This document shows, one piece after another, positions 13,829 to 59,337 of a stretch of 64,000 bases of DNA. A program made the position numbers and the translations under genes. Origin of the DNA: Solirubrobacter soli DSM 22325 (GTDB taxonomy: Bacteria; Actinomycetota; Thermoleophilia; Solirubrobacterales; Solirubrobacteraceae); NCBI RefSeq assembly GCF_000423665.1, contig NZ_AUIK01000001.1, forward strand, positions 810,422 through 874,421, in the 5' to 3' direction. Position 1 is the first letter of the stretch. Every line of letters begins with the position of its first letter. Below the pieces are notes generated by a model. The model had not been told where the DNA came from. It made no database searches and worked only from the letters and a program-made list of their open reading frames with translations.

Positions 13829-14326
13829 ATGAGCGTCACCGACGACCTGCTGGCCAATAACGCGGCCTACGCCGAGAACTTCGACAAGGGCGACCTCCCC
13901 CTTCCCCCGGCCAAGAAGGTCGCGGTGGTCGCCTGCATGGACGCCCGCCTCGACGTGCACGGCCTCCTCGGCCTGGCGCTGGGCGACGCCCACGTGATCC
14001 GCAACGCCGGCGGCGTCGTGACCGACGACGAGATCCGGTCTCTGGCGATCTCGCAGCGACTGCTCGGCACGGAAGAGATCGTCCTGATCCACCACACCGA
14101 CTGCGGCATGCTCACCTTCACGGACGACTCCTTCCGCGCCGACCTCCAAAAGGACACGGGCATCAAACCGCCTTGGTCCCCGGAGTCCTTCACGGACCTC
14201 GACGACGACGTGCGCTCGTCGATCGGACGCATCAAGGCGAGTCCGTTCATCCCGAACAAGTCGTCGGTGCGGGGGTTCGTGTACGACGTGCATACGGGAC
14301 TGCTGCGTGAGGTGGACGCTTCGTAG
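13829..14326 (+). CDS. Beta-class carbonic anhydrase
   Basis: A 165-residue zinc enzyme for CO2/bicarbonate interconversion. Zn ligands are Cys36 (VACMDAR, with the Asp38-Arg40 dyad), His89 and Cys92 (IHHTDCGM). The short length and the VIRNAGGVVTDDEIRSL block match the compact clade common in actinobacteria. ATG 13829. It is monocistronic, and the long inverted-repeat element begins just after its stop. Confidence 0.93.
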   Translation: MSVTDDLLANNAAYAENFDKGDLPLPPAKKVAVVACMDARLDVHGLLGLALGDAHVIRNAGGVVTDDEIRSLAISQRLLGTEEIVLIHHTDCGMLTFTDDSFRADLQKDTGIKPPWSPESFTDLDDDVRSSIGRIKASPFIPNKSSVRGFVYDVHTGLLREVDAS

Positions 14327-14331
14327 CTTGG

Positions 14332-14826
14332 CCGTGGCATCGGTGGGCGGTTGTGGCGTTGTGTGGCCGTGCCGGTATTCGGGAAACGGCTTGCGGTGAG
14401 GGGGGAGGGGGCAGAGAGCCAGCGGGTCCTCGAGCCTTCGTCCTGCGCGTCTATCGGCTCCCGCTCTCGTGGCGGGGTCGTGAGGAACGTCCATCTGCAC
14501 TCCGCGGGGGGTGGGTTACGTTTCGCCCCTGTACGGGGGCGGAACGTCGAACACCCCCACGAACGCGCCAACTCGAACAGTGCGGTTTCGGTCGAGAAGC
14601 GCCACCACCGACGAAAGCGACCACAACCGATCTCGCACGGTCTCCGTGGACCGTAACTTGACGGTCTCCCTGCAGGGCGCGGCGAGTCAGCACGGCCAGG
14701 CGCCACGGCGAACGGCGGCACGACCGATCAGGCCGGGGCGCAGCAGCGTCCCCCTCCCTCAGTGCTCGGCCGTTCCCCGAATACCGGCACGGCAGCGCAA
14801 CGCCACGGCGCCCACCGATGCCGCGG
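14332..14826. repeat. Long inverted-repeat element, copy A
   Basis: About 495 bp filling the whole gap between the convergent carbonic anhydrase and epimerase genes. The ends are inverted repeats of about 55 bp: GGCATCGGTGGGC at 14336 faces its complement ending at 14822, and GTGCCGGTATTCGGG faces CCCCGAATACCGGCAC. A purine-rich subterminal stretch (GTGAGGGGGAGGGGG) faces CCCCCTCCCTCA. Inside are two hairpins: 14518-14547 (12-bp arms around TGTACG) and 14649-14666 (GACCGT, loop AACTTG, ACGGTC). A second, highly similar copy is at 50756-51292. No protein is convincingly encoded. It could be a MITE-like element or a structured bidirectional terminator/RNA. Confidence 0.85.
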
Positions 14827-15731: not shown

Positions 15732-16678
15732 CGGCTCTGCGCGAGCTCGCGCTCAGGCTCGAGCGTCGGCGCGGGCGGTCCCACCGGAGCGCCGATCCGG
15801 CCGGCGGCCGCGGTGGCGACGAGCAGCGCGATCCAGGTCAGTGCGCTGAGCACGACGTGGAACCAGACGATCTCGGCGGGCAACTCCATCGAGTACTGCA
15901 CCAGGCCGACGAGGCCCTGGCAGGCGAGCAGGACGCAGACCGCGGTGACGGCGTTCTGCGTGGCGGCGTTCATCTTGCGGGCGCGCACGAGGAACCAGAC
16001 GCCGACACTCGCCAGGCCGAGGAACGTCGCCAGCGCGCCGTGCTGGTGGATCGCCCAGTCGAGCGTCTCCGCCCCGCGCCAGTCGAGCCGCGGCACGATG
16101 TCGCCGGTCCCCTCCCCGCCCGCGTGCGGGCCGGCGGCGGTGGCGATCGTCCCCAGCGACAGCGTCAGGAACCCCGGCAGCAGCAGGAAGCGCACGCTCC
16201 AGACACTCAAGCGATCCGTCGTGCGGGGTCGTTCTCCCGGTTCGAACGTCGCCCGCCAGGCCAAGGCGACGCACGCGACGAGCAGCAGCATCGACAGCAG
16301 GAAGTGGCCGATAACCCAGCCCGGGTCCAAGCCGTAGATCACCGTCAGGCCGCCCATGACGGCCTGACCGAGCACGCCGAGCGGCAGCAGCAGCGCGATC
16401 CAGCACAGGTCGCGCCGCACCGGGCGGCGGAACCACGCGAAGATCGCCGCGGCGAGACACGGGATCGCAACCACGGACGTCATCACGCGGTTGGAGAATT
16501 CGATGATGCCGTGCGTGTGCAGCTCCGGCGTCAGCCGCGTGCCCTCGCAGCGCGGCCATTCCGGGCAGCCGAGCCCGGAGCCCGTGAGACGCACCGCGGC
16601 GCCGGTGAAGACGATCAATGTGCACACGCCGAGCGCCGCGTAGGCGATCTGGCGATAGCGGGCGGGAGACACCTGCAT
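15728..16678 (-). CDS. ctaA: Heme A synthase (CtaA/COX15 family)
   Basis: A 316-residue membrane monooxygenase that oxidises the C8 methyl of heme O to give heme A for aa3-type cytochrome oxidase. About eight hydrophobic segments are visible. The extracytoplasmic loop GSGLGCPEWPRCEG holds the Cys pair (38/43) typical of Gram-positive CtaA; conserved His lie in LHTHGIIEFSNR, GHFLLSM, HQHGALATF and WFHVVLS. ATG 16678 was chosen; a TTG at 16699 preceded by a G-rich stretch is an alternative adding seven residues. Confidence 0.9.
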   Translation of the reverse strand: MQVSPARYRQIAYAALGVCTLIVFTGAAVRLTGSGLGCPEWPRCEGTRLTPELHTHGIIEFSNRVMTSVVAIPCLAAAIFAWFRRPVRRDLCWIALLLPLGVLGQAVMGGLTVIYGLDPGWVIGHFLLSMLLLVACVALAWRATFEPGERPRTTDRLSVWSVRFLLLPGFLTLSLGTIATAAGPHAGGEGTGDIVPRLDWRGAETLDWAIHQHGALATFLGLASVGVWFLVRARKMNAATQNAVTAVCVLLACQGLVGLVQYSMELPAEIVWFHVVLSALTWIALLVATAAAGRIGAPVGPPAPTLEPERELAQSR

Positions 16679-32228: not shown

Positions 32229-33472
32229 GCACCGCGATCGACGCCTCCGAGCTCGCCAAGCGCTACCGCGTGCGCAAGGGCGGCGGCGGCACGCTGCCGC
32301 CCCTGCTGCCGTGGCTGCACCGGCGCCAGTCCGCCTTCGTCAAGGAGGTCTGGGCGCTCGAGAACGTGTCGTTCAAGCTCGAGGCAGGGGAGCTGCTCGG
32401 GATCGTCGGGCCCAACGGCGCCGGCAAGTCGACCCTGCTGAAGATCCTCGCGCGGGTCACGCCGCCGACCTCGGGGCGGGCGGTCGTCCGCGGGCGCGTC
32501 GTGTCGCTGCTCGAGCTCGGATCGGCGTTCCAGGCCGAGGCGACGGGCCGCGAGAACATCTATCTCAACGCGGCCTTGAATGGGATTCCACGCGCCGACG
32601 TGCGCCGGCGGATGGATGAGATCGTCGCCTTCGCCGAGCTCGAGGACCACATCGACCTGCCGGTCGGCAAGTACTCGAGCGGCATGTACCTGCGGCTGGC
32701 GTTCTCGGTGGCGATCAACATGGAGCCGGACGTCCTGCTGGCCGACGAGGTGCTCGCGGTCGGCGACATCGCGTTCCAGGAGCGTTGCCTGCGGCGCGTC
32801 GAGGAAGAGGGCAAGCGCGGCCTGACCGTGCTGTTCGTCTCCCACGACATGGACGCGATCCGGCGCCTGTGCTCGCGCGCGCTGTGGATCCAGAGCGGGC
32901 GGGTCGTGCAGGACGGCGACTCGGACGAGGTCACCGAGGCCTACGAGTCCTCCGCCTGGAAGGCGACGGGAGCGAAGTCGCTCGACAGCGGCGCACACGT
33001 CCACGAGGCGGCCGAGTTGCTCGACGCCACGCTCGCCGGCCCCACCGGCGCGCAGATCGGCGCCGTCAGCGTCGACCAGGACTTCTACGTCAACGTGCGC
33101 TTCGCGGTCCGCCGCCCGGGGGTCGGGCTGCGCGTGGTGCTGGTCTTCCACGTGCGCGGGGCGATCGTCTTCCGGGTCGTGCAGCCGACGGTCGAGGAGA
33201 TCGCCGAGCCCGGCAACGTGACGATCCGCGCCCGCGTCCCGGGCCATCTGCTCGCCGACGTCGACTACACGGTCAAGGCGAGCGCCTGGGTGCACTACCA
33301 GGGGACCGAGAGCACGATCGTCCGCCATCAGGCGCTCGGGTTCCGCGTCTACCAGAGCGAGCGTGCCGACACCGCGCGCGGCGACTACGAGTGGCCGCTG
33401 GGCGGCGTCCTGCAACCGCGGCTCGACTGGGAGACGATCGGCGAGCCGCTGGCGGTCGACGCCCCACGCTGA
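32225..33472 (+). CDS. wzt: ABC polysaccharide export ATPase with C-terminal domain (Wzt-like)
   Basis: A 415-residue ATPase. Walker A is GPNGAGKST, the signature SSGMYLRLAF, Walker B LLADEVLAVGD, and the H-loop VSHDMDAIRR. Residues about 245-400 form an extra beta-rich domain like the glycan-recognition domain of Wzt from O8/O9a systems, where it binds the capped, often methylated, chain end. GTG 32225 overlaps the fusion gene stop, so the methyltransferase fusion and the transporter are co-translated. Partner permease is probably 27925-28803. Confidence 0.93.
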   Translation: MSTAIDASELAKRYRVRKGGGGTLPPLLPWLHRRQSAFVKEVWALENVSFKLEAGELLGIVGPNGAGKSTLLKILARVTPPTSGRAVVRGRVVSLLELGSAFQAEATGRENIYLNAALNGIPRADVRRRMDEIVAFAELEDHIDLPVGKYSSGMYLRLAFSVAINMEPDVLLADEVLAVGDIAFQERCLRRVEEEGKRGLTVLFVSHDMDAIRRLCSRALWIQSGRVVQDGDSDEVTEAYESSAWKATGAKSLDSGAHVHEAAELLDATLAGPTGAQIGAVSVDQDFYVNVRFAVRRPGVGLRVVLVFHVRGAIVFRVVQPTVEEIAEPGNVTIRARVPGHLLADVDYTVKASAWVHYQGTESTIVRHQALGFRVYQSERADTARGDYEWPLGGVLQPRLDWETIGEPLAVDAPR

Positions 33473-34827
33473 TGCGCTTCCTGTTCACGACCCTCCAGTT
33501 CCGCGAGTCGGACTTCTACGGCCGCGTGGGCGCTGAGCTCACGCGTCGCGGGCACGACGTCGCCCACGTCGTGTACTCCCGCCGTGGGGCCGAGGCGCTG
33601 CGCCGTACCGGCGTGAAGGCGGAGTGCCTGACCGACCGGATGGCGGCGCTCGGCCCGATCGCCGACCCTGAGGGCGAGGGGCGGCGGATCGTGGAGCGCT
33701 ACGGACTGCCGACGCTCCGTGACGTGTGGAAGACCGACTGGCCGTGCAACGGCAAGTCCGACGCGTACTGCGTCGAGCGCACGGTGCGCCATTTCCTCGC
33801 GCTGGAGGCGATCTTCGACGAGCTGGGACCCGACGTGGTCGTGCCCGAGGTGGGCTCGGAGACGATGCGCACCGCGACGCACGAGATCGCGCTCGCCCGC
33901 GGAGTGCAGGTCCTGTTCCTCTTCTACACCATCTTCGCGAACCCGCTTCGCCTGTACCGCAACACGATGCACGCGCCGATCGTCGGCGCCGACGAGCTGC
34001 GCGCGCTCAGCGACGCCGAGCGGGCGGAGGTCGACGCGTTCACCGCGCGCTTCACGGCGGCCGACAAGCCGATCCGCGAGTACCGCGCGGCCACGATCAC
34101 GCCCGCCAAGCTGCGCGACTTCGGCCGCCACGTCGCGGTCTCGGCGACCGCGGACGCCGACAACGACTACCTGCAGCCGCACCGCTTCGTCACGAACGTG
34201 CTGCGCGAGCGCTCCCGCGCGGTCGCCGCGCGCCGGCTCTATGCGCCGCTCGGCGACCGGCCGTACGTCTACTTCCCGCTGCACGTGGTCGACGACTACA
34301 AGATCAAGCGCGTGATCCCGCACTGCTACGACCAGGCGTCGATCATCGAGCAGGTCGCCGACGCGCTCCCGCACGGGTACGAGCTGGTGCTCAAGGAGCA
34401 CCCCATGTCGATCGGCCGCAACAAGCTCTCGCTGCTGCGGCGCGTGGCCCGGATCCCGAACGCGCGGCTGGTCGCGCCGCACACGTCGTCGCACGACCTG
34501 ATCAAGGGCGCCGACGCGATCGCCGTGATCTCGTCGACCGTCGGCCTCGAGGCGCTGCTGTATGACAAGCCCGTGTTGACGCTCGGCCAGCCGTTCTACT
34601 CGGGCTACGGCGTGACCGTGGACGTCGACTCGTTCGCCGAGATCCGCACCGCCGTGCCCGCGCTGCTGCGCTTCACGCCCGACCACGAACGGACGCAGCG
34701 CTTCCTGCACGCCGCGATGCGCGCGTGCTATCCGGGCAAGCCGGTGTTGGTCGACGACTCCGACGCCAACGCGCTCGCGCTGGCCGGCTCGCTCGACGCC
34801 GCGGTCCGCGAGCCCGTCCCCGCGTAG
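33472..34827 (+). CDS. Capsule-type (KpsC/KpsS-like) glycosyltransferase
   Basis: A 451-residue protein with PF05159 (Capsule_synth)-like features: PYVYFPLHVVDDYKIKR, LVLKEHPMSIGRNKLSLL, VAPHTSSHDLIKGADAIAVI and SSTVGLEALLYDKPVLTLG. In Gram-negative capsule systems this family contains retaining beta-Kdo transferases that use CMP-Kdo. A CMP-ulosonic acid operon lies 10 kb upstream, so this enzyme is a candidate user of that donor; the link is inference. ATG 33472 overlaps the Wzt stop (TGATG). The repeat at 34853-34964 lies just after the stop. Confidence 0.75.
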   Translation: MRFLFTTLQFRESDFYGRVGAELTRRGHDVAHVVYSRRGAEALRRTGVKAECLTDRMAALGPIADPEGEGRRIVERYGLPTLRDVWKTDWPCNGKSDAYCVERTVRHFLALEAIFDELGPDVVVPEVGSETMRTATHEIALARGVQVLFLFYTIFANPLRLYRNTMHAPIVGADELRALSDAERAEVDAFTARFTAADKPIREYRAATITPAKLRDFGRHVAVSATADADNDYLQPHRFVTNVLRERSRAVAARRLYAPLGDRPYVYFPLHVVDDYKIKRVIPHCYDQASIIEQVADALPHGYELVLKEHPMSIGRNKLSLLRRVARIPNARLVAPHTSSHDLIKGADAIAVISSTVGLEALLYDKPVLTLGQPFYSGYGVTVDVDSFAEIRTAVPALLRFTPDHERTQRFLHAAMRACYPGKPVLVDDSDANALALAGSLDAAVREPVPA

Positions 34828-34852
34828 TGGCCGCGCCCGGAACCACGCTCGG

Positions 34853-34964
34853 TTCTGGCGGGCCCCGCCCGCCCCTGCCGGCCCCCGGCCGGCACACACG
34901 TACCACCAGTATGCGAGCGCCGACCGTGGCCCGGCAGGAGCGACCGGTGATCTGGCCAGCGATC
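34853..34964 (+). repeat. GT-leader repeat, copy 1
   Basis: A 112-bp sequence that recurs on the other strand at 57843-57989. Shared blocks in order: TTCTGGC, GGCCCCGCCCGCCCCT, CACACGTAC, GTATGCG, and GCGACCGGTGATCTGGCCAG followed by CGATC. CGTAC and GTATG flank a variable loop and could pair with one wobble; CTGGCCAG is a palindrome. Here it fills the gap between the stop of the KpsS-like gene (34827) and the start of the next glycosyltransferase. The function is unknown: mobile REP-like unit, processing site or leader RNA. Confidence 0.8.
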
Positions 34965-34992
34965 GACCGTGGTCCCGAGCGCGGCCACTAGG

Positions 34993-36021
34993 TTGCGCGT
35001 CGCCTACGACGAGACCGGGCTCGAGTTGGACGCGACCGGCTCGGCCCGCGCGGCGCGCTGCCTGCGCGACGCGCTGGAGCCGCTCGCCACCGTCGTCGGG
35101 CTCGCTCAGCCCTCGGGGCCCGGAGGCCGCTACGGCCGCGGGCTGATCCGCGAGCTCGCGTGGTACCCGTTCGGCCTGCCGCGCCGGGCGCAGACGGTGC
35201 GCGCGGACGTGCTCGCCTGCCCGATGCCGCTGGCGCCGCCACGGCGGGTCCAGGTCCCGGTCGTGCTGACGATCAACGACGGGATCGTGTGGGACCACCC
35301 GGAGTGGCTGACCCGCGCGCACGCGCTCCACGCCCGGCTCGTCCTCGCCCCCGCCGCCCGTGCCGCGACCCGCGTGCTGGTGCCGTCGCAACACACGCGC
35401 GAGCGGGTGCTGGCCAACGTCCGCGGGCTCGACCCGGAGCGCCTGGTCGTGACGCCTTATGGCATCGATCCGCGCTTCTCGCCCGGGCCGGGACCGGACC
35501 GCGCCCCGTACCTGCTGGCGGTCGGCACGCTGCAGCCGCGCAAGAACCTCGAGGCCGCGCTGCGGGCGTTCGAACGGCTCGACGGCGGGCATCGCCTGGT
35601 CGTCGTCGGCGCGCGTGGTTGGCGCGACGAGGAGCTGCTCGCCCGCGTGCACGGCTCGCCCGCGGCGGCCCGGATCGACCTGCTCGGCCGCGTCGACGAC
35701 GACGAGCTGCTGGCGCTCTACCGCGGCGCGGCCTGCCTGTTGTACCCGTCGCGCGCCGAGGGCTTCGGCTTCCCGCCGCTGGAGGCGATGGCCTGCGGGA
35801 CCCCCGTGGTGTGCACGGCGGCCGGCAGCCTGCCCGAGGTCACGGGCGACGCCGCGCTCGTCGTCGAGCCCGACGACGATTCCGGGATGGCCGCCGCCGT
35901 CGAACGGATCCTGGCCGATCCGGCGCCGTGGCGCGAAGCCGGGCTCGAGCAGGCCGCGCGGTTCAGCTGGGCGCGCTGTGCGGAGCTGACGGTGGCGGCG
36001 TACGCCGCAGCCGCCGCATGA
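34993..36021 (+). CDS. GT4 glycosyltransferase
   Basis: A 342-residue retaining GT-B enzyme (mannosyl/rhamnosyl-type GT4). VTPYGIDPRF, VGTLQPRKNLEAAL (donor-site Lys) and the E-x7-E motif EGFGFPPLEAMACGTP near residues 256-264 are all present. The acceptor domain opens LRVAYDETGLELDATG. The start is uncertain: TTG 34993 gives the family-like N-terminus, GTG 34969 would add eight residues and begin 5 bp after the repeat. The last 59 bp overlap the convergent GT2 gene. Confidence 0.88.
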   Translation: MRVAYDETGLELDATGSARAARCLRDALEPLATVVGLAQPSGPGGRYGRGLIRELAWYPFGLPRRAQTVRADVLACPMPLAPPRRVQVPVVLTINDGIVWDHPEWLTRAHALHARLVLAPAARAATRVLVPSQHTRERVLANVRGLDPERLVVTPYGIDPRFSPGPGPDRAPYLLAVGTLQPRKNLEAALRAFERLDGGHRLVVVGARGWRDEELLARVHGSPAAARIDLLGRVDDDELLALYRGAACLLYPSRAEGFGFPPLEAMACGTPVVCTAAGSLPEVTGDAALVVEPDDDSGMAAAVERILADPAPWREAGLEQAARFSWARCAELTVAAYAAAAA

Positions 36022-44917: not shown

Positions 44918-46466
44918 AGAACCGCACCAGGGTCATGCCGAGGCCGCTGATCCCGAGCAGCGCGCCGGTCAGCAGGAGCGTGGTGCCGGTCGCCAGCGAG
45001 GCGCGGCGCGGCAGCGCCCGCACGATCGCCGCGATCGCGAGCCCGAACAGCGGCAGCAGCACGAACAGGTAGCGGCCGACGATGATCGGGTCGCCGGCTT
45101 CGATCTGCAGGCTGCGATACGCGGCGAAGTGCAGCGAGGCGATCAGCACGACCGGCGCGGCCCCGAGCATCAGCGCGACGTCCCAGCGCGCGCGGATCGC
45201 CGCGCGGGCGCGGAAGAGGGTCACCGCGAGCGCGGCCAGCCCGGCGAGCGTCGCCACCGCGAGCAGCCGGTAGACCGTTTCCGGCCAGCGCACCTCAAGC
45301 GACGCGAAGACGCCGTAGAACGTGTCCACGAACGCCTGCTGGGCGCCGTAGTCGGGGCCGATCGCCTGGGTCATGAACGGCAGCTTGGGCAGGTAGAACT
45401 GCCACACGTAGGACACGAACTGGCGCACGTCGAAGCCCGCGCCGCTGGTCGAGTCCAGGACGCCGAGGCCCGCGACGAGCGCGAGGAGCACGCCCGCCGC
45501 CGCGACCGCGGCCCCGCCGACGAGCACCTTCGTGCTGAAGCGGTGCCGTAGCCCGAGCCCCGCCGCCAGCAGCGCCAGCAGCGCGAGCGGGGCGCCGCGC
45601 GGGTGGGTGAGGACCGCGGCCGCGGCGAGCGCCGCCAGCCCGCCGGCGGTGAGCGGCGTCAGCCCGCGGCTCACCACCCGCACCGCGAGCGTCAGGAACA
45701 GCGCCCAGATCGCGGTGAGCAGCGGGTCGGGCGAGACGCCCGCGACGACGAACGCGAACTGCGGCTGGACGGCGACGGCGCCGGCCGCGATCGTGCGCGC
45801 CCAGGTGTCGTCGCCGAAGATCTGGCCGGCGAGCCGCCAGGTCAGCGCGATCGTCAGCAGGTAGAGCGGCAGGTTCGCCAGTCGCATCGCGAACAGCCGG
45901 TCGAAGAAGTCGCCCCAGGACGCGAGCTCGTAGGCGACCCCGGCGTACAGGTACGAGCCGGGCGGGTTGCGCGAGGCCGTGTTCGGGCCGGTCTTCGCGT
46001 CGCGCGCGTCCGGCCCGAGCGTGCGGTCGTGGGCGTGCCACAGCCGCTCGTCGAGCCCGGTCCAGTACGGGCGCGCGCTGAGGTTCCCGACCAGCGGGCG
46101 CAGGCCGGCGTCGAGCCCCACCGCCTCGAGTTCGGGCGAGAACGGATCGCCGTCGCCCTCGAGCGGCGGCCGCTCGTGCGTCTCGACCAGCCGCTGCGTG
46201 TACGCGAAGTGCACCGACTCGTCCGGCGCCTGCAGCGCGGGCAGCACCAGCATCCAGGCGAGGAACTGGACCGTCGCGACGAGGAGGAGCGCGACGAGCG
46301 GCGCGCGCGTGGCCGCGCGGGGCCGCGCCTCGCCGCCCAGCCGCGTCCCGGCGCCCGGCCGCGCCTCGCCGCCCCGCGGCTCGCCGCCCGGCCGCGCCTC
46401 GCCGCCCCGCGGCTCGCGGGCCGGCCCCGTCCCGGCGCGGGGCGGCGTGGCGTCGGCGTCGCTCAT
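44910..46466 (-). CDS. DUF2142 membrane protein (GT-C-like)
   Basis: A 518-residue paralogue of 41502-42944. A Pro/Gly/Arg-rich N-terminal tail of about 50 residues, encoded by a 33-bp tandem repeat, precedes the first helix. The first loop reads LQAPDESVHFAYTQRLVE; further blocks are NPPGSYLYAGVAYEL, AGVSPDPLLTAIWALF and VGRYLFVLLPLFG. ATG 46466 overlaps the upstream glycosyltransferase stop (ATGA). Expected to act on the outer face of the membrane with a polyprenyl-phosphate donor; the reaction is unproven. Confidence 0.85.
   Translation of the reverse strand: MSDADATPPRAGTGPAREPRGGEARPGGEPRGGEARPGAGTRLGGEARPRAATRAPLVALLLVATVQFLAWMLVLPALQAPDESVHFAYTQRLVETHERPPLEGDGDPFSPELEAVGLDAGLRPLVGNLSARPYWTGLDERLWHAHDRTLGPDARDAKTGPNTASRNPPGSYLYAGVAYELASWGDFFDRLFAMRLANLPLYLLTIALTWRLAGQIFGDDTWARTIAAGAVAVQPQFAFVVAGVSPDPLLTAIWALFLTLAVRVVSRGLTPLTAGGLAALAAAAVLTHPRGAPLALLALLAAGLGLRHRFSTKVLVGGAAVAAAGVLLALVAGLGVLDSTSGAGFDVRQFVSYVWQFYLPKLPFMTQAIGPDYGAQQAFVDTFYGVFASLEVRWPETVYRLLAVATLAGLAALAVTLFRARAAIRARWDVALMLGAAPVVLIASLHFAAYRSLQIEAGDPIIVGRYLFVLLPLFGLAIAAIVRALPRRASLATGTTLLLTGALLGISGLGMTLVRFYV
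46353..46418 (-). repeat. 33-bp tandem repeat in the DUF2142 N-terminus
   Basis: Two adjacent, almost identical 33-bp units (46353-46385 and 46386-46418), with a partial third unit at lower coordinates. They encode an 11-residue unit, EPRGGEARPGG, in the cytoplasmic tail of the DUF2142 protein. The length is a multiple of three, so copy-number change would keep the frame. Confidence 0.85.
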
Positions 46467-49737: not shown

Positions 49738-50754
49738 GTGCGGAGATCCTTGCCGACGGCGCCCGCGAGCATGCGTACGCCGATGTCGGCGGGTCCGATC
49801 GTGGGCTGGGGACGCGGCCCCTATCCGACCCCGCGGATCGGCGCCGCGCTGCGGCTCGCGTTCGTCGGCCAGGCCACCTACTTCGAGGCCTGCGCGCTCG
49901 ACGAGCAGTCCGCGCGGGTGCGGACGCGCTTCTTCGAATACCGCGCGGGAGCCGACGCCGAGGCGATGCTCGCGCACGTCCGTTCGTTCGCCCCACACGT
50001 GGTCGTCGTGTTCCGCCCGGAGGTGCTGCCGCCGGGGATCTTCCACGGGTTGCGCGCCGCCGTCCTGGGCTTCCTGACCGAGCCGGTCCCCCGGACCCGC
50101 GGCAACCGCGCGCATCCAGACCTGAAGCGCCGCCGCGCCGCGCTGGCGGCGATGGACACCGGCAACGTCGACCGGCTCGTCGTCTTCGACCCGCTGATCG
50201 CCCCGACAGCGTCGGCGTTCATGCCGGTCTGGCGCTCGGTTCCCCTGCCCGTGGCCGACTCGTTGTTCGGCCCGGTGCGCGTGGGCGGGGGCCGCCCGTC
50301 GATCCTCTTCGTCGGCCGTTCCACCGACCACCGCGAGCGCTTCCTGGCGCGCGCCAAGAACGAGCTGGACGTGGTGCACGCCGCCCACGGCATCGGCCCC
50401 GAGGAACTCGCGAACCTCGTCGCCCAGCACGAGATCGCCGTCAACCTCCACAACGAGCCGTACCCGTCCTTCGAGAACCGCGTGTGCCTGCACCTCGCGG
50501 CGGGCCAGCTGGTCGTCTCGGAGACGTTGTCGCCGACCCACGGGCTCGAGCCCGACATCGACTACCTCGAGGCCGCCGACCCGGACCAGCTCACCGCGAT
50601 CCTCCATGCCGCCGTGCGGTTCCCGGCGGCGTATCTGCGGGTGCGGCACCGTGGCCGTCGCAAGGCCGAAGCGTTCCGCGCATCGCACGTCTACCCGCGG
50701 TTGGTGGACGACTTCCTGAACGACCTGCGGGTGTTCGGGACCGCGCGCTCGTAG
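49738..50754 (+). CDS. CgeB-like glycosyltransferase family protein
   Basis: A 338-residue protein resembling CgeB/GT1-type transferases: LRLAFVGQATYFEACAL at the start of the first domain, ILFVGRSTDHRERFL, then VAVNLHNEPYPSFENRVCLHLAAGQ and ETLSPTHGLEPDIDYLE. Paralogue of 52547-53326. The start is unsure: GTG 49738 sits just after TACACT (49725-49730), a possible -10, which would make it leaderless; ATG 49771 and ATG 49783 are alternatives. It ends one base before repeat copy B. Confidence 0.78.
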   Translation: MRRSLPTAPASMRTPMSAGPIVGWGRGPYPTPRIGAALRLAFVGQATYFEACALDEQSARVRTRFFEYRAGADAEAMLAHVRSFAPHVVVVFRPEVLPPGIFHGLRAAVLGFLTEPVPRTRGNRAHPDLKRRRAALAAMDTGNVDRLVVFDPLIAPTASAFMPVWRSVPLPVADSLFGPVRVGGGRPSILFVGRSTDHRERFLARAKNELDVVHAAHGIGPEELANLVAQHEIAVNLHNEPYPSFENRVCLHLAAGQLVVSETLSPTHGLEPDIDYLEAADPDQLTAILHAAVRFPAAYLRVRHRGRRKAEAFRASHVYPRLVDDFLNDLRVFGTARS

Positions 50755-50755
50755 G

Positions 50756-51292
50756 GGGCGTGGCATCGGTGGGCGGTCGCGTGTTGTGCTGCCGTGCCGG
50801 TATTCGGGGAACGGCTTGCGGTGAGGGGGCGGGGGCACAGAGCCAGCGGGTCCTCTCGCCTTTGTCCTGCTCGTCTATCGGCACGGTCGTTACAGATCGT
50901 GGTACCGGACACCCCTATCCGCTCTCGGCTGCCGTGAGCGGCATGAGGAACGTCCATCTGCACTTCGCGGGGGGTGGCGAACGTTTCGCCCCTGTACGGG
51001 GGCGAAACGTCGAACACCCCTACGAACGCGCCAGCTCGGACAGTGCGGTTTCGGTCGAGAGGCGCCACCACCGGCGAAAGTGATCACGATCGATCTCGCA
51101 TGGTCTCCGTGGACCGTAACTTGACGGTCTCCCTGCACGGCGCGGCGAGCCACCGCGGCCGGGCGCAGCGGCGGACGGCGGCACGACCGACCCGGCCGAG
51201 GCGCAGCAGCGACCCCCTCCCTCAGTGCTAGGCCGTTCCCCGAATACCGGCACGGGAACACAACGACGCAACCGCCCACCGATGCCACGCCC
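50756..51292. repeat. Long inverted-repeat element, copy B
   Basis: About 537 bp between the convergent CgeB-like gene (stop 50752-50754) and a GT4 gene (stop at 51299). The left end GGGCGTGGCATCGGTGGGCG (50756) faces its complement ending at 51292, and GTGCCGGTATTCGGGGAACG faces its complement near 51235-51255. Internal hairpins match copy A: 50981-51010 (12-bp perfect arms, loop TGTACG) and 51112-51129 (GACCGT/ACGGTC, loop AACTTG). It is longer than copy A because of different sequence around 50880-50945. No target-site duplication is evident at either copy. Confidence 0.85.
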
Positions 51293-56947: not shown

Positions 56948-57829
56948 CTAGGCCCGCTCCTCCAACGAGCACCACTCGCGCACGCGCGCCGGCAAACGGT
57001 CGGCGCGGGAGCCGAGTGCCCCGCCGACGGCGCGCACCGTGTGGTGGCGGAGCGAGCGGATGACCTCGCGCGCGGTGACCGGGTCCATCGCGCCGATGTC
57101 GTCGCGCACCTCGCGCTGCAGCGTCAGGGGGGCGAGCGGCTGCACCCAGCCGTGGACGTCGTGCAGGGCGCGCCACTCGTCGAACGCCCGCCTGAACTGC
57201 TCCAACGGGCCGTAGTCGTGCCAGTGGATGACCGCCGCGCCGGGCTCGAAGACCTTGGCGTAGCCGGCGCGGAGCATCGCGCTCGCGAGCGCCTGGTCCT
57301 CGGCGTACTGAACGTCCGGGAACGGGACGGAGCGCCACGCGGAGCGGCGCACGGCGCCGTTGGACGACGTGAAGAACGTCTCCAGACCCGGGCCTGACGG
57401 CGTTCGCGTTCGGTCGACTCGCGTCGCAGCCGGAAACCACGAGGAGAGCTCGCGCGCGATCGCCACCGGAGCGCCGGGGCCCGCCTGTGCCGGCCCGTAG
57501 ACGAGCGCGACGTCGTCCGACGAGAACCCGTCCAACAGCGCCTGCAGCCAGCCGGGAGATGCGGGCAGCGCGTCCTGGGTGAGGAACGCGACGACGTCGC
57601 CGGACGTGCGCGACATCAGCTCGTTGCGCGTCCCGCTGTGCGAGAAGCGCTCGACGCCGAACACCTCGGCGTCGAAGGACCGGGCGAGATCCGCCGACCC
57701 GTCCACCGACGCACTGTCGGCGATCACCAGCTCACACGGAACCGTCTGGGCGCGCACCGCGGCGAGCACCTCGCCCAGCCGCGCGCCCCCGTTGCGAACC
57801 GGGATCGCGACGCTAACGCGTTCGGTCAC
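56948..57829 (-). CDS. GT2 rhamnosyltransferase-like glycosyltransferase
   Basis: A 293-residue GT2 of the RfbF/rhamnosyltransferase type: VSVAIPVRNGGARLGEVLAA, LVIADSASVDGSADLA, FLTQDALPASPGWLQAL (metal-binding QDA), and SSNGAVRRSAW followed by YAEDQALASAML with the catalytic acidic pair. GTG 57829 directly follows repeat copy 2, which ends 14 bp upstream. No gene partner overlaps it. Probably adds rhamnose to a surface polysaccharide (family-based inference). Confidence 0.88.
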   Translation of the reverse strand: MTERVSVAIPVRNGGARLGEVLAAVRAQTVPCELVIADSASVDGSADLARSFDAEVFGVERFSHSGTRNELMSRTSGDVVAFLTQDALPASPGWLQALLDGFSSDDVALVYGPAQAGPGAPVAIARELSSWFPAATRVDRTRTPSGPGLETFFTSSNGAVRRSAWRSVPFPDVQYAEDQALASAMLRAGYAKVFEPGAAVIHWHDYGPLEQFRRAFDEWRALHDVHGWVQPLAPLTLQREVRDDIGAMDPVTAREVIRSLRHHTVRAVGGALGSRADRLPARVREWCSLEERA

Positions 57830-57842
57830 GTCGGGTCGGGCG

Positions 57843-57989
57843 GATCGCTGGCCAGATCACCGGTCGCCCCTGCCCCTGTCTGAAGGCTTCGCCTTCGCCA
57901 CCGCTTCGCTCGCCCGGTGGGCGTGCGCATACCGGGGCGTACGTGTGCGCCGGACGGGGCGCGGTAGGGGCGGGCGGGGCCGGCCAGAA
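57843..57989 (-). repeat. GT-leader repeat, copy 2
   Basis: The minus-strand counterpart of the 34853-34964 repeat. It reads TTCTGGCCGGCCCCGCCCGC at 57989 downward, then CACACGTAC, GTATGCG, and GCGACCGGTGATCTGGCCAG ending in CGATC at 57843. Compared with copy 1 it carries about 35 extra bases containing GGCGAAGGCGAAGCC. As with copy 1, it begins after the stop of an upstream gene (58016) and ends just before a glycosyltransferase start (57829). Confidence 0.8.
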
Positions 57990-58015
57990 TCCGTTCGCCC
58001 CGGCGTGATCGGACG

Positions 58016-59200
58016 CTACTTGCTGCGTCGCAGACCCAGGATCGAGAGCAGGAACGAGGTGAAGAAGATCTGCAGGCCGACGATGACGAGCGATGCGGCG
58101 AGCACGGCCAGGCGCTCCTCGGACAGCTGCCCGAAGCCGCGCTGGACCCAGATGATCACGATCGCGCCCATGACGACGAACCCGAGGAACGCGACGAGGC
58201 CGCCCAGGACGAGCCCGTGCTCGAGCCTGAACCGCGCCCGCATGCGATCGAACCAGGGGTCCTTCTCGTTCATGAAGTAGGTGCCGTAGGCGTGTGCGCA
58301 CAGGCCGAGGGCGACGATCTGGACGCCGACGATCATCAGCAGCGCGCCCGCGACCATCGTGTGCAGGTCCCACTCGCGGCCGAAGACGTCGATCTGCAGC
58401 AGCGCGACGAGCGAGACGAGCGTGCCCAGGAAGAGCATGATCGCGCCCGGCAGCATGAACAGGTACGTCGGGCTGTGGACGAGCAGGAAGCGCAGGTGGC
58501 GCCAGCCGTCGCGGAAGCTCGAGAGCTTGCTCTCGCCGCCGCGCGGGTGGTACTCGATCGGGAACTCCTCGATCCGCAGCTTCTCCTTGGAGGCGCGGAT
58601 GACCATCTCGGAGGCGAACTCCATGCCGGTCGTGCGCAGGTCCAGGCGCGGCAGCACGTCACGCCGCAGGGCGCGCATGCCGCAGTGCGCGTCGCTGACG
58701 CCGGTGCGGAAGAAGACGTTCAGGATGCCCGTGAGCACCGGGTTGCCGACGTAGCGGTGCAGCCACGGCATCGCGCCCGGATGGATCTGGTCCATGCGGT
58801 CGCCCATCACCAGCTCGGCGCCGCCGTCGAGATGCTTGACGAACTTCGGGATCTCGCGGAAGTCGTACGTCAGGTCCGCGTCGCCCATGACGATGTAGCG
58901 CCCGCGGGCGGCGGCGAAGCCGGCCAGGTAGGCGCTGCCGTAGCCGCGGCGCGGCTCGTGGATGACGCGCGCGCCGGCCGCCGCCGCGAGCTCCGCGCTG
59001 CGGTCCTCGGAGGCGTTGTCGGCGACGACGACCTCGCCGGGGATGCCGAACTCGGACATCACGGCCAGGGCGGTGGTGACACAGCGCTCGATGTTCGCCT
59101 CTTCGTTGAGGCACGGGATCACGACCGAGACGATGAGCTCCTCGTCGTCCTGGTGATCGAGGGGTTCGAGCGAGGGAGGTGAAGGCTGAAGTGTGCTCAT
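58016..59200 (-). CDS. DPM1-like GT2 with C-terminal membrane helices
   Basis: A 394-residue GT2 of the dolichol/polyprenyl-phosphate sugar synthase type: VSVVIPCLNEEANIERCV, EVVVADNASEDRSAELA, VMGDADLTYDFREIPKF (DAD metal site), and SDAHCGMRALRRDVL. Four hydrophobic segments (about 245-390) anchor it, as in GtrB-like synthases. It is a second source of polyprenyl-linked sugar besides 43389-44150. ATG 59200 chosen; upstream in-frame ATG 59248 would add 16 residues. Divergent from the GT4 at 59338 across 137 bp with a small AT-richer patch near 59245-59260. Confidence 0.9.
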   Translation of the reverse strand: MSTLQPSPPSLEPLDHQDDEELIVSVVIPCLNEEANIERCVTTALAVMSEFGIPGEVVVADNASEDRSAELAAAAGARVIHEPRRGYGSAYLAGFAAARGRYIVMGDADLTYDFREIPKFVKHLDGGAELVMGDRMDQIHPGAMPWLHRYVGNPVLTGILNVFFRTGVSDAHCGMRALRRDVLPRLDLRTTGMEFASEMVIRASKEKLRIEEFPIEYHPRGGESKLSSFRDGWRHLRFLLVHSPTYLFMLPGAIMLFLGTLVSLVALLQIDVFGREWDLHTMVAGALLMIVGVQIVALGLCAHAYGTYFMNEKDPWFDRMRARFRLEHGLVLGGLVAFLGFVVMGAIVIIWVQRGFGQLSEERLAVLAASLVIVGLQIFFTSFLLSILGLRRSK

Positions 59201-59337
59201 GGCAAGGCCGGGACGCGTCTGTCCCGATGATCGGCTAACGGGCGACAAAGCATTAAGTCGCGCAGAAAGCCGCGAGCCAGGGTAGCCAACGCCGCGGCGG
59301 GCTCCTGCAGGCGGTGTGCCACCCTACCCGCCCGCCC

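What the first reader, a model, noticed from the sequence alone, without database searches (positions are those of the whole stretch)
34853..34964. Second repeat family upstream of glycosyltransferase genes (copies at 34853-34964 and 57843-57989)
The two copies, on opposite strands 23 kb apart, share several long identical blocks, including GCGACCGGTGATCTGGCCAG. Both have the same orientation relative to transcription: after the stop of one glycan gene and just before the GTG/TTG start of a glycosyltransferase. A short stem with variable loop (CGTAC...GTATG) is kept. One copy carries a 35-bp extra hairpin-like segment. It may be a REP-like mobile unit, or a leader RNA or promoter module controlling glycosyltransferases.
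Basis: seen in the sequence. Interest (0 to 1): 0.75.

Follow-up and report, generated by a model that had tools for sequence, protein, structure and literature searches.

The report
ERIC-like hairpin mobile element, stop-codon insertions
The two repeats are copies of a small mobile DNA element that lands on stop codons of all kinds of genes in soil actinobacteria and whose one strand has been kept able to fold into a long hairpin; it resembles the ERIC repeats of enterobacteria, whose way of moving is still unknown.

Summary
Each copy is a long imperfect palindrome between two TA dinucleotides (34825-34990; 57814-58018). The host genome (genus Solirubrobacter) has at least 16 full copies and a tip-deleted one. 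A covariance model finds the family in 60 of 399 genomes of the class. Other than the two window copies, neighbours are not glycosyltransferases (obg-proB, phoH-ybeY, ald, acyl carrier protein-RNase III), and gene orientation shows no rule. The element is mobile: near-identical copies in one related genome, and empty sites in relatives. It inserts at the TA of CTA-type sites, so in 26 of 40 copies the terminal TA lies in a neighbour's stop codon. The stem is held by compensatory changes on one strand only (G.T 299 versus A.C 49; held-out genomes 170 versus 17), whichever way genes run. This points to a single-stranded form (RNA or ssDNA) that matters to the element. IS630 transposases are absent from seven carriers; Y1/RAYT genes do not co-occur; reverse transcriptase is missing from several carriers. 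Closest known kind: TA-ended bacterial MITEs, above all ERIC, with which Solirubrobacteraceae copies share an apex core; common descent with ERIC is not shown. Mobiliser unknown.

The parts
34825..34826 (.). left flanking TA; with the element's first G it forms the stop codon TAG (34825-34827) of the capsule-synthesis-like gene 32785-34827
34827..34988 (-). copy 1 of the palindromic element (162 nt); the better-folding strand is the minus strand
   Evidence: CM R1 137.7 bits, E 6.3e-24 at 34823-34990 minus; folds -135.5 against -113.0 kcal/mol
34897..34914 (-). apex motif GCATACTGGTGGTACGTG (reads CACGTACCACCAGTATGC on +)
   Evidence: G000:C1:845318-845335 minus
34989..34990 (.). right flanking TA (site CTAG)
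34969..36021 (+). group 1 glycosyltransferase ORF; listed GTG start lies inside the element; a TTG at 34993, two bases after the right TA, is an alternative start
57814..57815 (.). left flanking TA of copy 2, inside the first codons of the family 2 glycosyltransferase ORF 56948-57829 (minus)
57816..58016 (+). copy 2 of the element, more diverged; better-folding strand is plus
   Evidence: CM R1 43.1 bits, E 3.7e-6 at 57816-58020 plus; folds -136.9 against -113.9
57876..57909 (+). extra ~34 nt in the 5' arm of copy 2, itself hairpin-like (GAAGGC TTC GCCTTC); limits approximate
   Evidence: alignment
57927..57945 (+). apex motif of copy 2, GCATACCGGGGCGTACGTG
58017..58018 (.). right flanking TA; with the element's last C it is the TAG stop (58016-58018) of ORF 58016-59248 (minus)

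Best explanation
A family of non-autonomous mobile palindromic elements (MITE / ERIC type) of Thermoleophilia. SHOWN: about 162 nt between flanking TAs; dispersed and recently mobile; inserted at the TA of CTAG/CTAA/CTAC sites, very often a stop codon, so that the gene keeps a stop; the whole unit folds into one long hairpin whose pairing is conserved by compensatory change; the surplus of G.T and purine-purine mismatches lies always on the same strand relative to the element, whichever way the neighbouring genes run. INFERRED: a machinery acting in trans uses a single-stranded form of this one strand (ssDNA exposed in replication, or a transcript) and recognises the ends and the apex; the wobble pairs tell the two strands of a palindrome apart. 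Stop-codon position follows from target choice (CTAG is rare and often a stop codon here) plus selection against gene damage. The copies in this window are neutral spacers between co-oriented genes, not regulators dedicated to glycosyltransferases.
For: Copies. Six copies 96-100% identical to the query in single-contig genome G022 and two alike in G108. Empty sites in relatives, e.g. G108 locus L082 against L160 and L166, L075 against L163. TA-to-TA spacing 162 in 14 of 20 copies with both ends intact; terminal TA in a neighbour's stop codon in 26 of 40, against 31 of 783 flanking TAs. Covariation: 38 of 54 pairs changed on both sides; 94.4% of cells paired; score 0.594 against at most 0.114 with slid partners. 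Strand bias: fold more stable on the apex strand in 44 of 44; G.T 299 / A.C 49 in 42 copies; 170 / 17, 21 of 21 held-out genomes; G.A 132 / C.T 47 and 68 / 10. Upstream base C in 26 of 28 but downstream base G in 16 of 30 (p 0.001). Class-wide: 60 of 399 genomes.
Against: No mobiliser found. The strand bias could reflect an RNA function unrelated to movement. Held-out copies were oriented by a structure-based model, which favours their better-folding strand. TA duplication cannot be told from an element that ends in CTA. Six of the 11 comparisons gave no clean empty site (L152, L153, L159, L161, L173, L181), and several copies have lost the right TA.
Confidence: 0.75

Rival explanations
1. Classical MITE of an IS630/Tc1-mariner transposon (TA target, terminal inverted repeats, cut and paste of double-stranded DNA); the hairpin is incidental.
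For: TA at both ends; end consensus TAGTG...CGGAAGTTCG in both arms of many copies; RUP is such a case (PMC2229807 passages).
Against: DDE_3 (PF13358) absent from all 7 carrier genomes searched; no longer element with these ends came up in G022; does not explain strand-biased compensatory pairing and a conserved apex.
Confidence: 0.1
2. REP/REPIN-type element moved by a Y1 (HUH) RAYT transposase acting on single-stranded hairpins.
For: Strand-specific hairpin and stricter upstream than downstream target base fit a single-strand mechanism; Y1_Tnp genes exist in G000 (2) and other Solirubrobacter.
Against: Y1_Tnp absent from carriers G022, G108, G050, G137; no co-occurrence in the class: 20 of 60 carriers against 117 of 339 non-carriers.
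Confidence: 0.1
3. A structured RNA element with a host function (mRNA 3'-end stabiliser, RNase III substrate or bidirectional terminator) that spread by an ordinary transposase and was then kept.
For: Strong RNA-type covariation; position at gene 3' ends; ERIC and Correia elements affect mRNA decay (PMC2229807 and PMC10969869 passages).
Against: Better-folding strand is antisense to genes about as often as sense; copies sit inside conserved gene pairs such as obg-proB and phoH-ybeY; few insertion sites are shared between genomes, and there are empty sites.
Confidence: 0.25
4. Leader RNA or promoter module for glycosyltransferases.
For: Both window copies precede glycosyltransferase ORFs.
Against: 0 of 27 tested genes beside the 14 other copies matched a glycosyltransferase family; no orientation rule.
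Confidence: 0.02

Closest known systems
ERIC / IRU / RU-1 elements of Enterobacterales
   Same: Imperfect palindrome with TA at the termini, intergenic, mobiliser not known (PMC2229807, PMC10969869 passages). Same apex core GC-NTAC-loop-GTAN-GT: ERIC GAGC-TTAC-ATAA-GTAA-GTGAC against GC-ATAC-TGGTG-GTAC-GTG. Same strand folds better in 20 of 22 ERIC-type loci with G.A excess 146 against 25 C.T.
   Different: 127 against about 162 nt; no full-length similarity, model R1 does not hit ERIC; ERIC has tandem G.A at the apex base and no G.T excess (43 against 37); the strict core is absent from 21 of 21 held-out Thermoleophilia copies.
REP / REPIN elements with RAYT transposases
   Same: Palindromic, dispersed, single-strand hairpin logic.
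   Different: No Y1 transposase in several carriers and no co-occurrence; far longer than 20-40-bp REPs (PMC3733652 abstract and passages).
RUP, Correia/NEMIS, Nezha (TA-type MITEs)
   Same: TA termini, terminal inverted repeats, fold-back structure (RUP and Correia: PMC2229807 passages; Nezha recalled).
   Different: RUP is tied to IS630-Spn1 (PMC2229807 passage); no IS630 transposase in 7 carriers here.
YPAL/RU-2 of Yersinia (168 bp)
   Same: Similar length, palindromic, mobile (PMC2229807 passage).
   Different: No TA termini, variable duplications of 3-26 bp (PMC2229807 passage).

Membership tests
Bacterial MITE of the TA-ended palindromic kind | Small, non-coding, dispersed in several intergenic places, with inverted-repeat ends | tested here: met
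Bacterial MITE of the TA-ended palindromic kind | TA at both termini and evidence of insertion | tested here: met
   20 of 40 copies have both TAs intact by the criteria used
Bacterial MITE of the TA-ended palindromic kind | Derived from an identified autonomous transposon (not demanded of ERIC or CIR) | tested here: inconclusive
   none found, but only DDE_3, Y1_Tnp and RVT_1 families were tested, so other transposases remain open
ERIC | Conserved central inverted repeat | tested here: inconclusive
   apex core shared by Solirubrobacteraceae copies, Clostridial loci and Vampirovibrio locus L110, but 0 of 21 held-out Thermoleophilia copies have the strict core
ERIC | Sequence homology along the element | tested here: not met
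   model R1 does not hit ERIC; pairwise ERIC-Solirubrobacter score 25 is within the shuffle range, max 30 of 1000
REP/REPIN | Cognate Y1 RAYT in the genome | tested here: not met
IS630/Tc1 MITE | IS630-type transposase with matching ends | tested here: not met
   0 of 7 genomes
Retro-element (reverse transcriptase dependent) | Reverse transcriptase in carriers | tested here: not met
   RVT_1 absent from carriers G022, G136, G137, G134 and G050
Known structured RNA (Rfam 15) | Match to a family at gathering score | tested here: not met
   (window, 0 matches); one search gave only sub-threshold chance matches to microRNA models and one intron model

The most novel reading that the evidence does not exclude
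ERIC and these Thermoleophilia elements, with the Clostridial and Vampirovibrio palindromes that share the apex, are branches of one trans-phylum class of mobile hairpins. They move through a single-stranded form of one fixed strand by a machinery that is none of the usual transposases tested; wobble pairs and purine mismatches mark the strand to be used.
Probability: 0.25. Interest if true: 0.85.

Novelty: new variant of a known kind. Interest (0 to 1): 0.6.

Why it matters
How ERIC-type repeats move is an open question (PMC2229807, passages read). This family gives strong evidence of strand-specific selection on the hairpin, defined ends, empty sites and a single-contig genome with a fresh set of copies (G022). 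That makes the question testable: which gene follows the elements, and is the moving form RNA or single-stranded DNA?

Tried and rejected
Glycosyltransferase control: rejected on flanking genes and orientation. Two window-only copies: rejected. IS630 MITE, RAYT/REPIN and reverse transcription were tested and found wanting. Known RNA family: none. A possible relation to the alanine dehydrogenase gene (copies beside it in G000, G022 and G135) was not pursued beyond noting. Blast of the Vampirovibrio element against plasmids gave only short matches (10% of the query or less); the four looked at did not look like the element and were dropped. Strand bias as a by-product of transcription by neighbouring genes: rejected, since the bias follows the apex and not the genes. 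ERIC as a member of the same sequence family: not supported by model or pairwise score, and G.T against A.C is balanced in ERIC-type loci (43 against 37); only the fold energies and G.A excess agree. Of the 37 loci L219-L255 used as the ERIC-type yardstick, 22 distinct ones were counted; 3 were left out as too near an end and the rest as repeats of the same sequence. L231 and the repeated L249-type loci look to me like chance or coding matches and folded no better on the apex strand; they are in the 22. No paper in the library held two or more of three apex strings and 'ERIC-like', and none of the listings names this family; all are limited to the held open-access library.

Full report
Observation. 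The repeat is real. The shared 20-mer occurs exactly twice in the 9.31-Mb genome that holds the window (C1:810422-874421), and ten times with up to two mismatches, with none for the reversed control. Blast and pattern searches of the same genome give 16 full-length copies and one tip-deleted copy (L025). The title lines of the named genome collection show the same elements in Solirubrobacter phytolaccae and Ca. Solirubrobacter pratensis; with the kinship labels this places the host in Solirubrobacter.

Anatomy. Each copy is one long imperfect palindrome between two TA dinucleotides. Where both TAs are intact (20 of 40 copies), 162 nt lie between them in 14, 161 or 163 in four, and 168 and 169 in two where a second CTA lies just outside. 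The two arms carry the same outer sequence, TAGTG then about nine bases then a CGGAAGTTCG-like block. The tip is GCATACYGGTRGTACGTG in Solirubrobacteraceae; two subfamilies with different arms share it. In the window, copy 1 spans 34825-34990 and copy 2 57814-58018. The first G of copy 1 completes the TAG stop of the capsule-like gene, and the last C of copy 2 completes the stop of ORF 58016-59248.

Mobility. G022, a single-contig genome of another genus, has six full copies at 96-100% identity to the query copy and several tip-deleted remnants; G108 has two near-identical copies. With 12 joined flank pairs as query, relatives without the element were found. Junctions were clean in L082 against L160 and L166, and in L075 against L163; approximate in L082 against L158 and L129 against L180; and not interpretable in the other six of the 11 comparisons. 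The target is CTAG, CTAA or CTAC. In 26 of 40 copies the terminal TA lies in the stop codon of a flanking gene, against 31 of 783 TAs in the flanks and 6 of 15 flanking CTAGs: target choice explains most of the stop-codon rule. Gene calls in these scripts are a frame-composition heuristic.

Neighbours. 27 of the 28 called genes next to the 14 other copies of this genome were put to Pfam (one short ORF of L017 was not sent): obg-proB, phoH-ybeY, alanine dehydrogenase, acyl carrier protein-RNase III, RelA, penicillin-binding protein and others. None matched a glycosyltransferase family; two had no Pfam match. Orientation of the apex strand to the flanking genes: 12 same, 12 opposite, 11 convergent, 5 divergent.

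Structure on one strand. The apex strand folds better than its complement in 44 of 44 copies, mean difference 27 kcal/mol. Aligning the two arms of 42 copies by Watson-Crick matches only, the apex strand has 299 G.T against 49 A.C, and 132 G.A against 47 C.T in 38 of them. In 32 aligned copies 94.4% of cells form standard pairs, 38 of 54 pairs changed on both sides, and the covariation score is 0.594 against 0.07-0.11 when partners are slid. Model R1 from this alignment finds the element in 60 of 399 genomes of the class, at most seven candidates scored per genome. In 21 copies from 21 genomes that were not rows of its alignment, G.T is 170 against 17 A.C and exceeds it in 21 of 21 (one of these, L194, is from G050, another copy of which was a row); orientation there came from the model, which favours the better-folding strand, but most of those copies keep a TGGTGG-like loop on the same strand. 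Copies sense and antisense to genes show the same bias, so it is a property of the element's own single-stranded form. The base before the left TA is C in 26 of 28 copies; the base after the right TA is G in 16 of 30 (p 0.001): the target too is read with a direction.

Mobiliser. DDE_3 (IS630): 0 of 7 carriers. Y1_Tnp (RAYT): absent from carriers G022, G108, G050 and G137, and not associated in the class, 20 of 60 carriers against 117 of 339 others. Reverse transcriptase: absent from carriers G022, G136, G137, G134 and G050. Other transposase families were not tested. No longer element with these ends was seen in G022.

Comparison. The nearest described kind is the TA-ended bacterial MITEs; ERIC stands out. 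Exact matches of the 18-nt tip in the named collection fell, besides Solirubrobacter and single chance-like hits, on the tip of a repeated palindrome in a Clostridiales Family XIII MAG (5 loci; the apex strand folds better in the 4 that could be folded) and on the middle of a MITE-like palindrome in a Vampirovibrio MAG, L110. L110 reads AGGAGC-ATAC-TGGTA-GTAC-GTGAC; ERIC reads AGGAGC-TTAC-ATAA-GTAA-GTGAC. Against common descent: R1 does not hit ERIC; ERIC against a Solirubrobacter copy scores within the shuffle range and ERIC against L110 barely above it, 5 of 2000 shuffles as high; and the strict core is missing from 21 of 21 held-out Thermoleophilia copies. I therefore call it ERIC-like, not ERIC.

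Verdict. A new family of palindromic mobile elements, common in Thermoleophilia (class name recalled for Solirubrobacter; the tool gives only kinship), without a special link to glycosyltransferases. The striking part is the strand-specific selection on the whole hairpin without an identifiable cognate transposase.

Noticed in passing
window 14321-14825 and 50749-51289: Two ~500-bp repeats, about 90% alike in their matching blocks, with inverted-repeat ends (GCCGTTCCCCGAATACCGGCACGG) and internal hairpins: another, larger mobile palindrome-ended element.
   Followed up: partly
L074:1425-1592 (G000 C9): A copy lies directly between an acyl carrier protein gene and the RNase III gene, the enzyme that would cut such a hairpin RNA.
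   Followed up: no
L062, L088, L078: Copies of different subfamilies sit beside the alanine dehydrogenase gene in three genomes, in two of them within a few bases of the same 3' position.
   Followed up: partly
L025, L131, L138: Remnants with the hairpin tip deleted, as expected when long palindromes are lost by slippage.
   Followed up: partly
L099, L102, L106, L114, L115: Repeated two-hairpin element in a Clostridiales Family XIII MAG carrying the exact Solirubrobacter apex and its own longer inverted ends.
   Followed up: partly
window 57815-57829: The listed GTG start and first codons of the family 2 glycosyltransferase lie inside the element end.
   Followed up: no
window 46306-46410: Three tandem 36-nt GC-rich repeats.
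   Followed up: no
window 16511-16633 (+): Very weak model match (E 0.41), possibly a decayed copy or chance.
   Followed up: no
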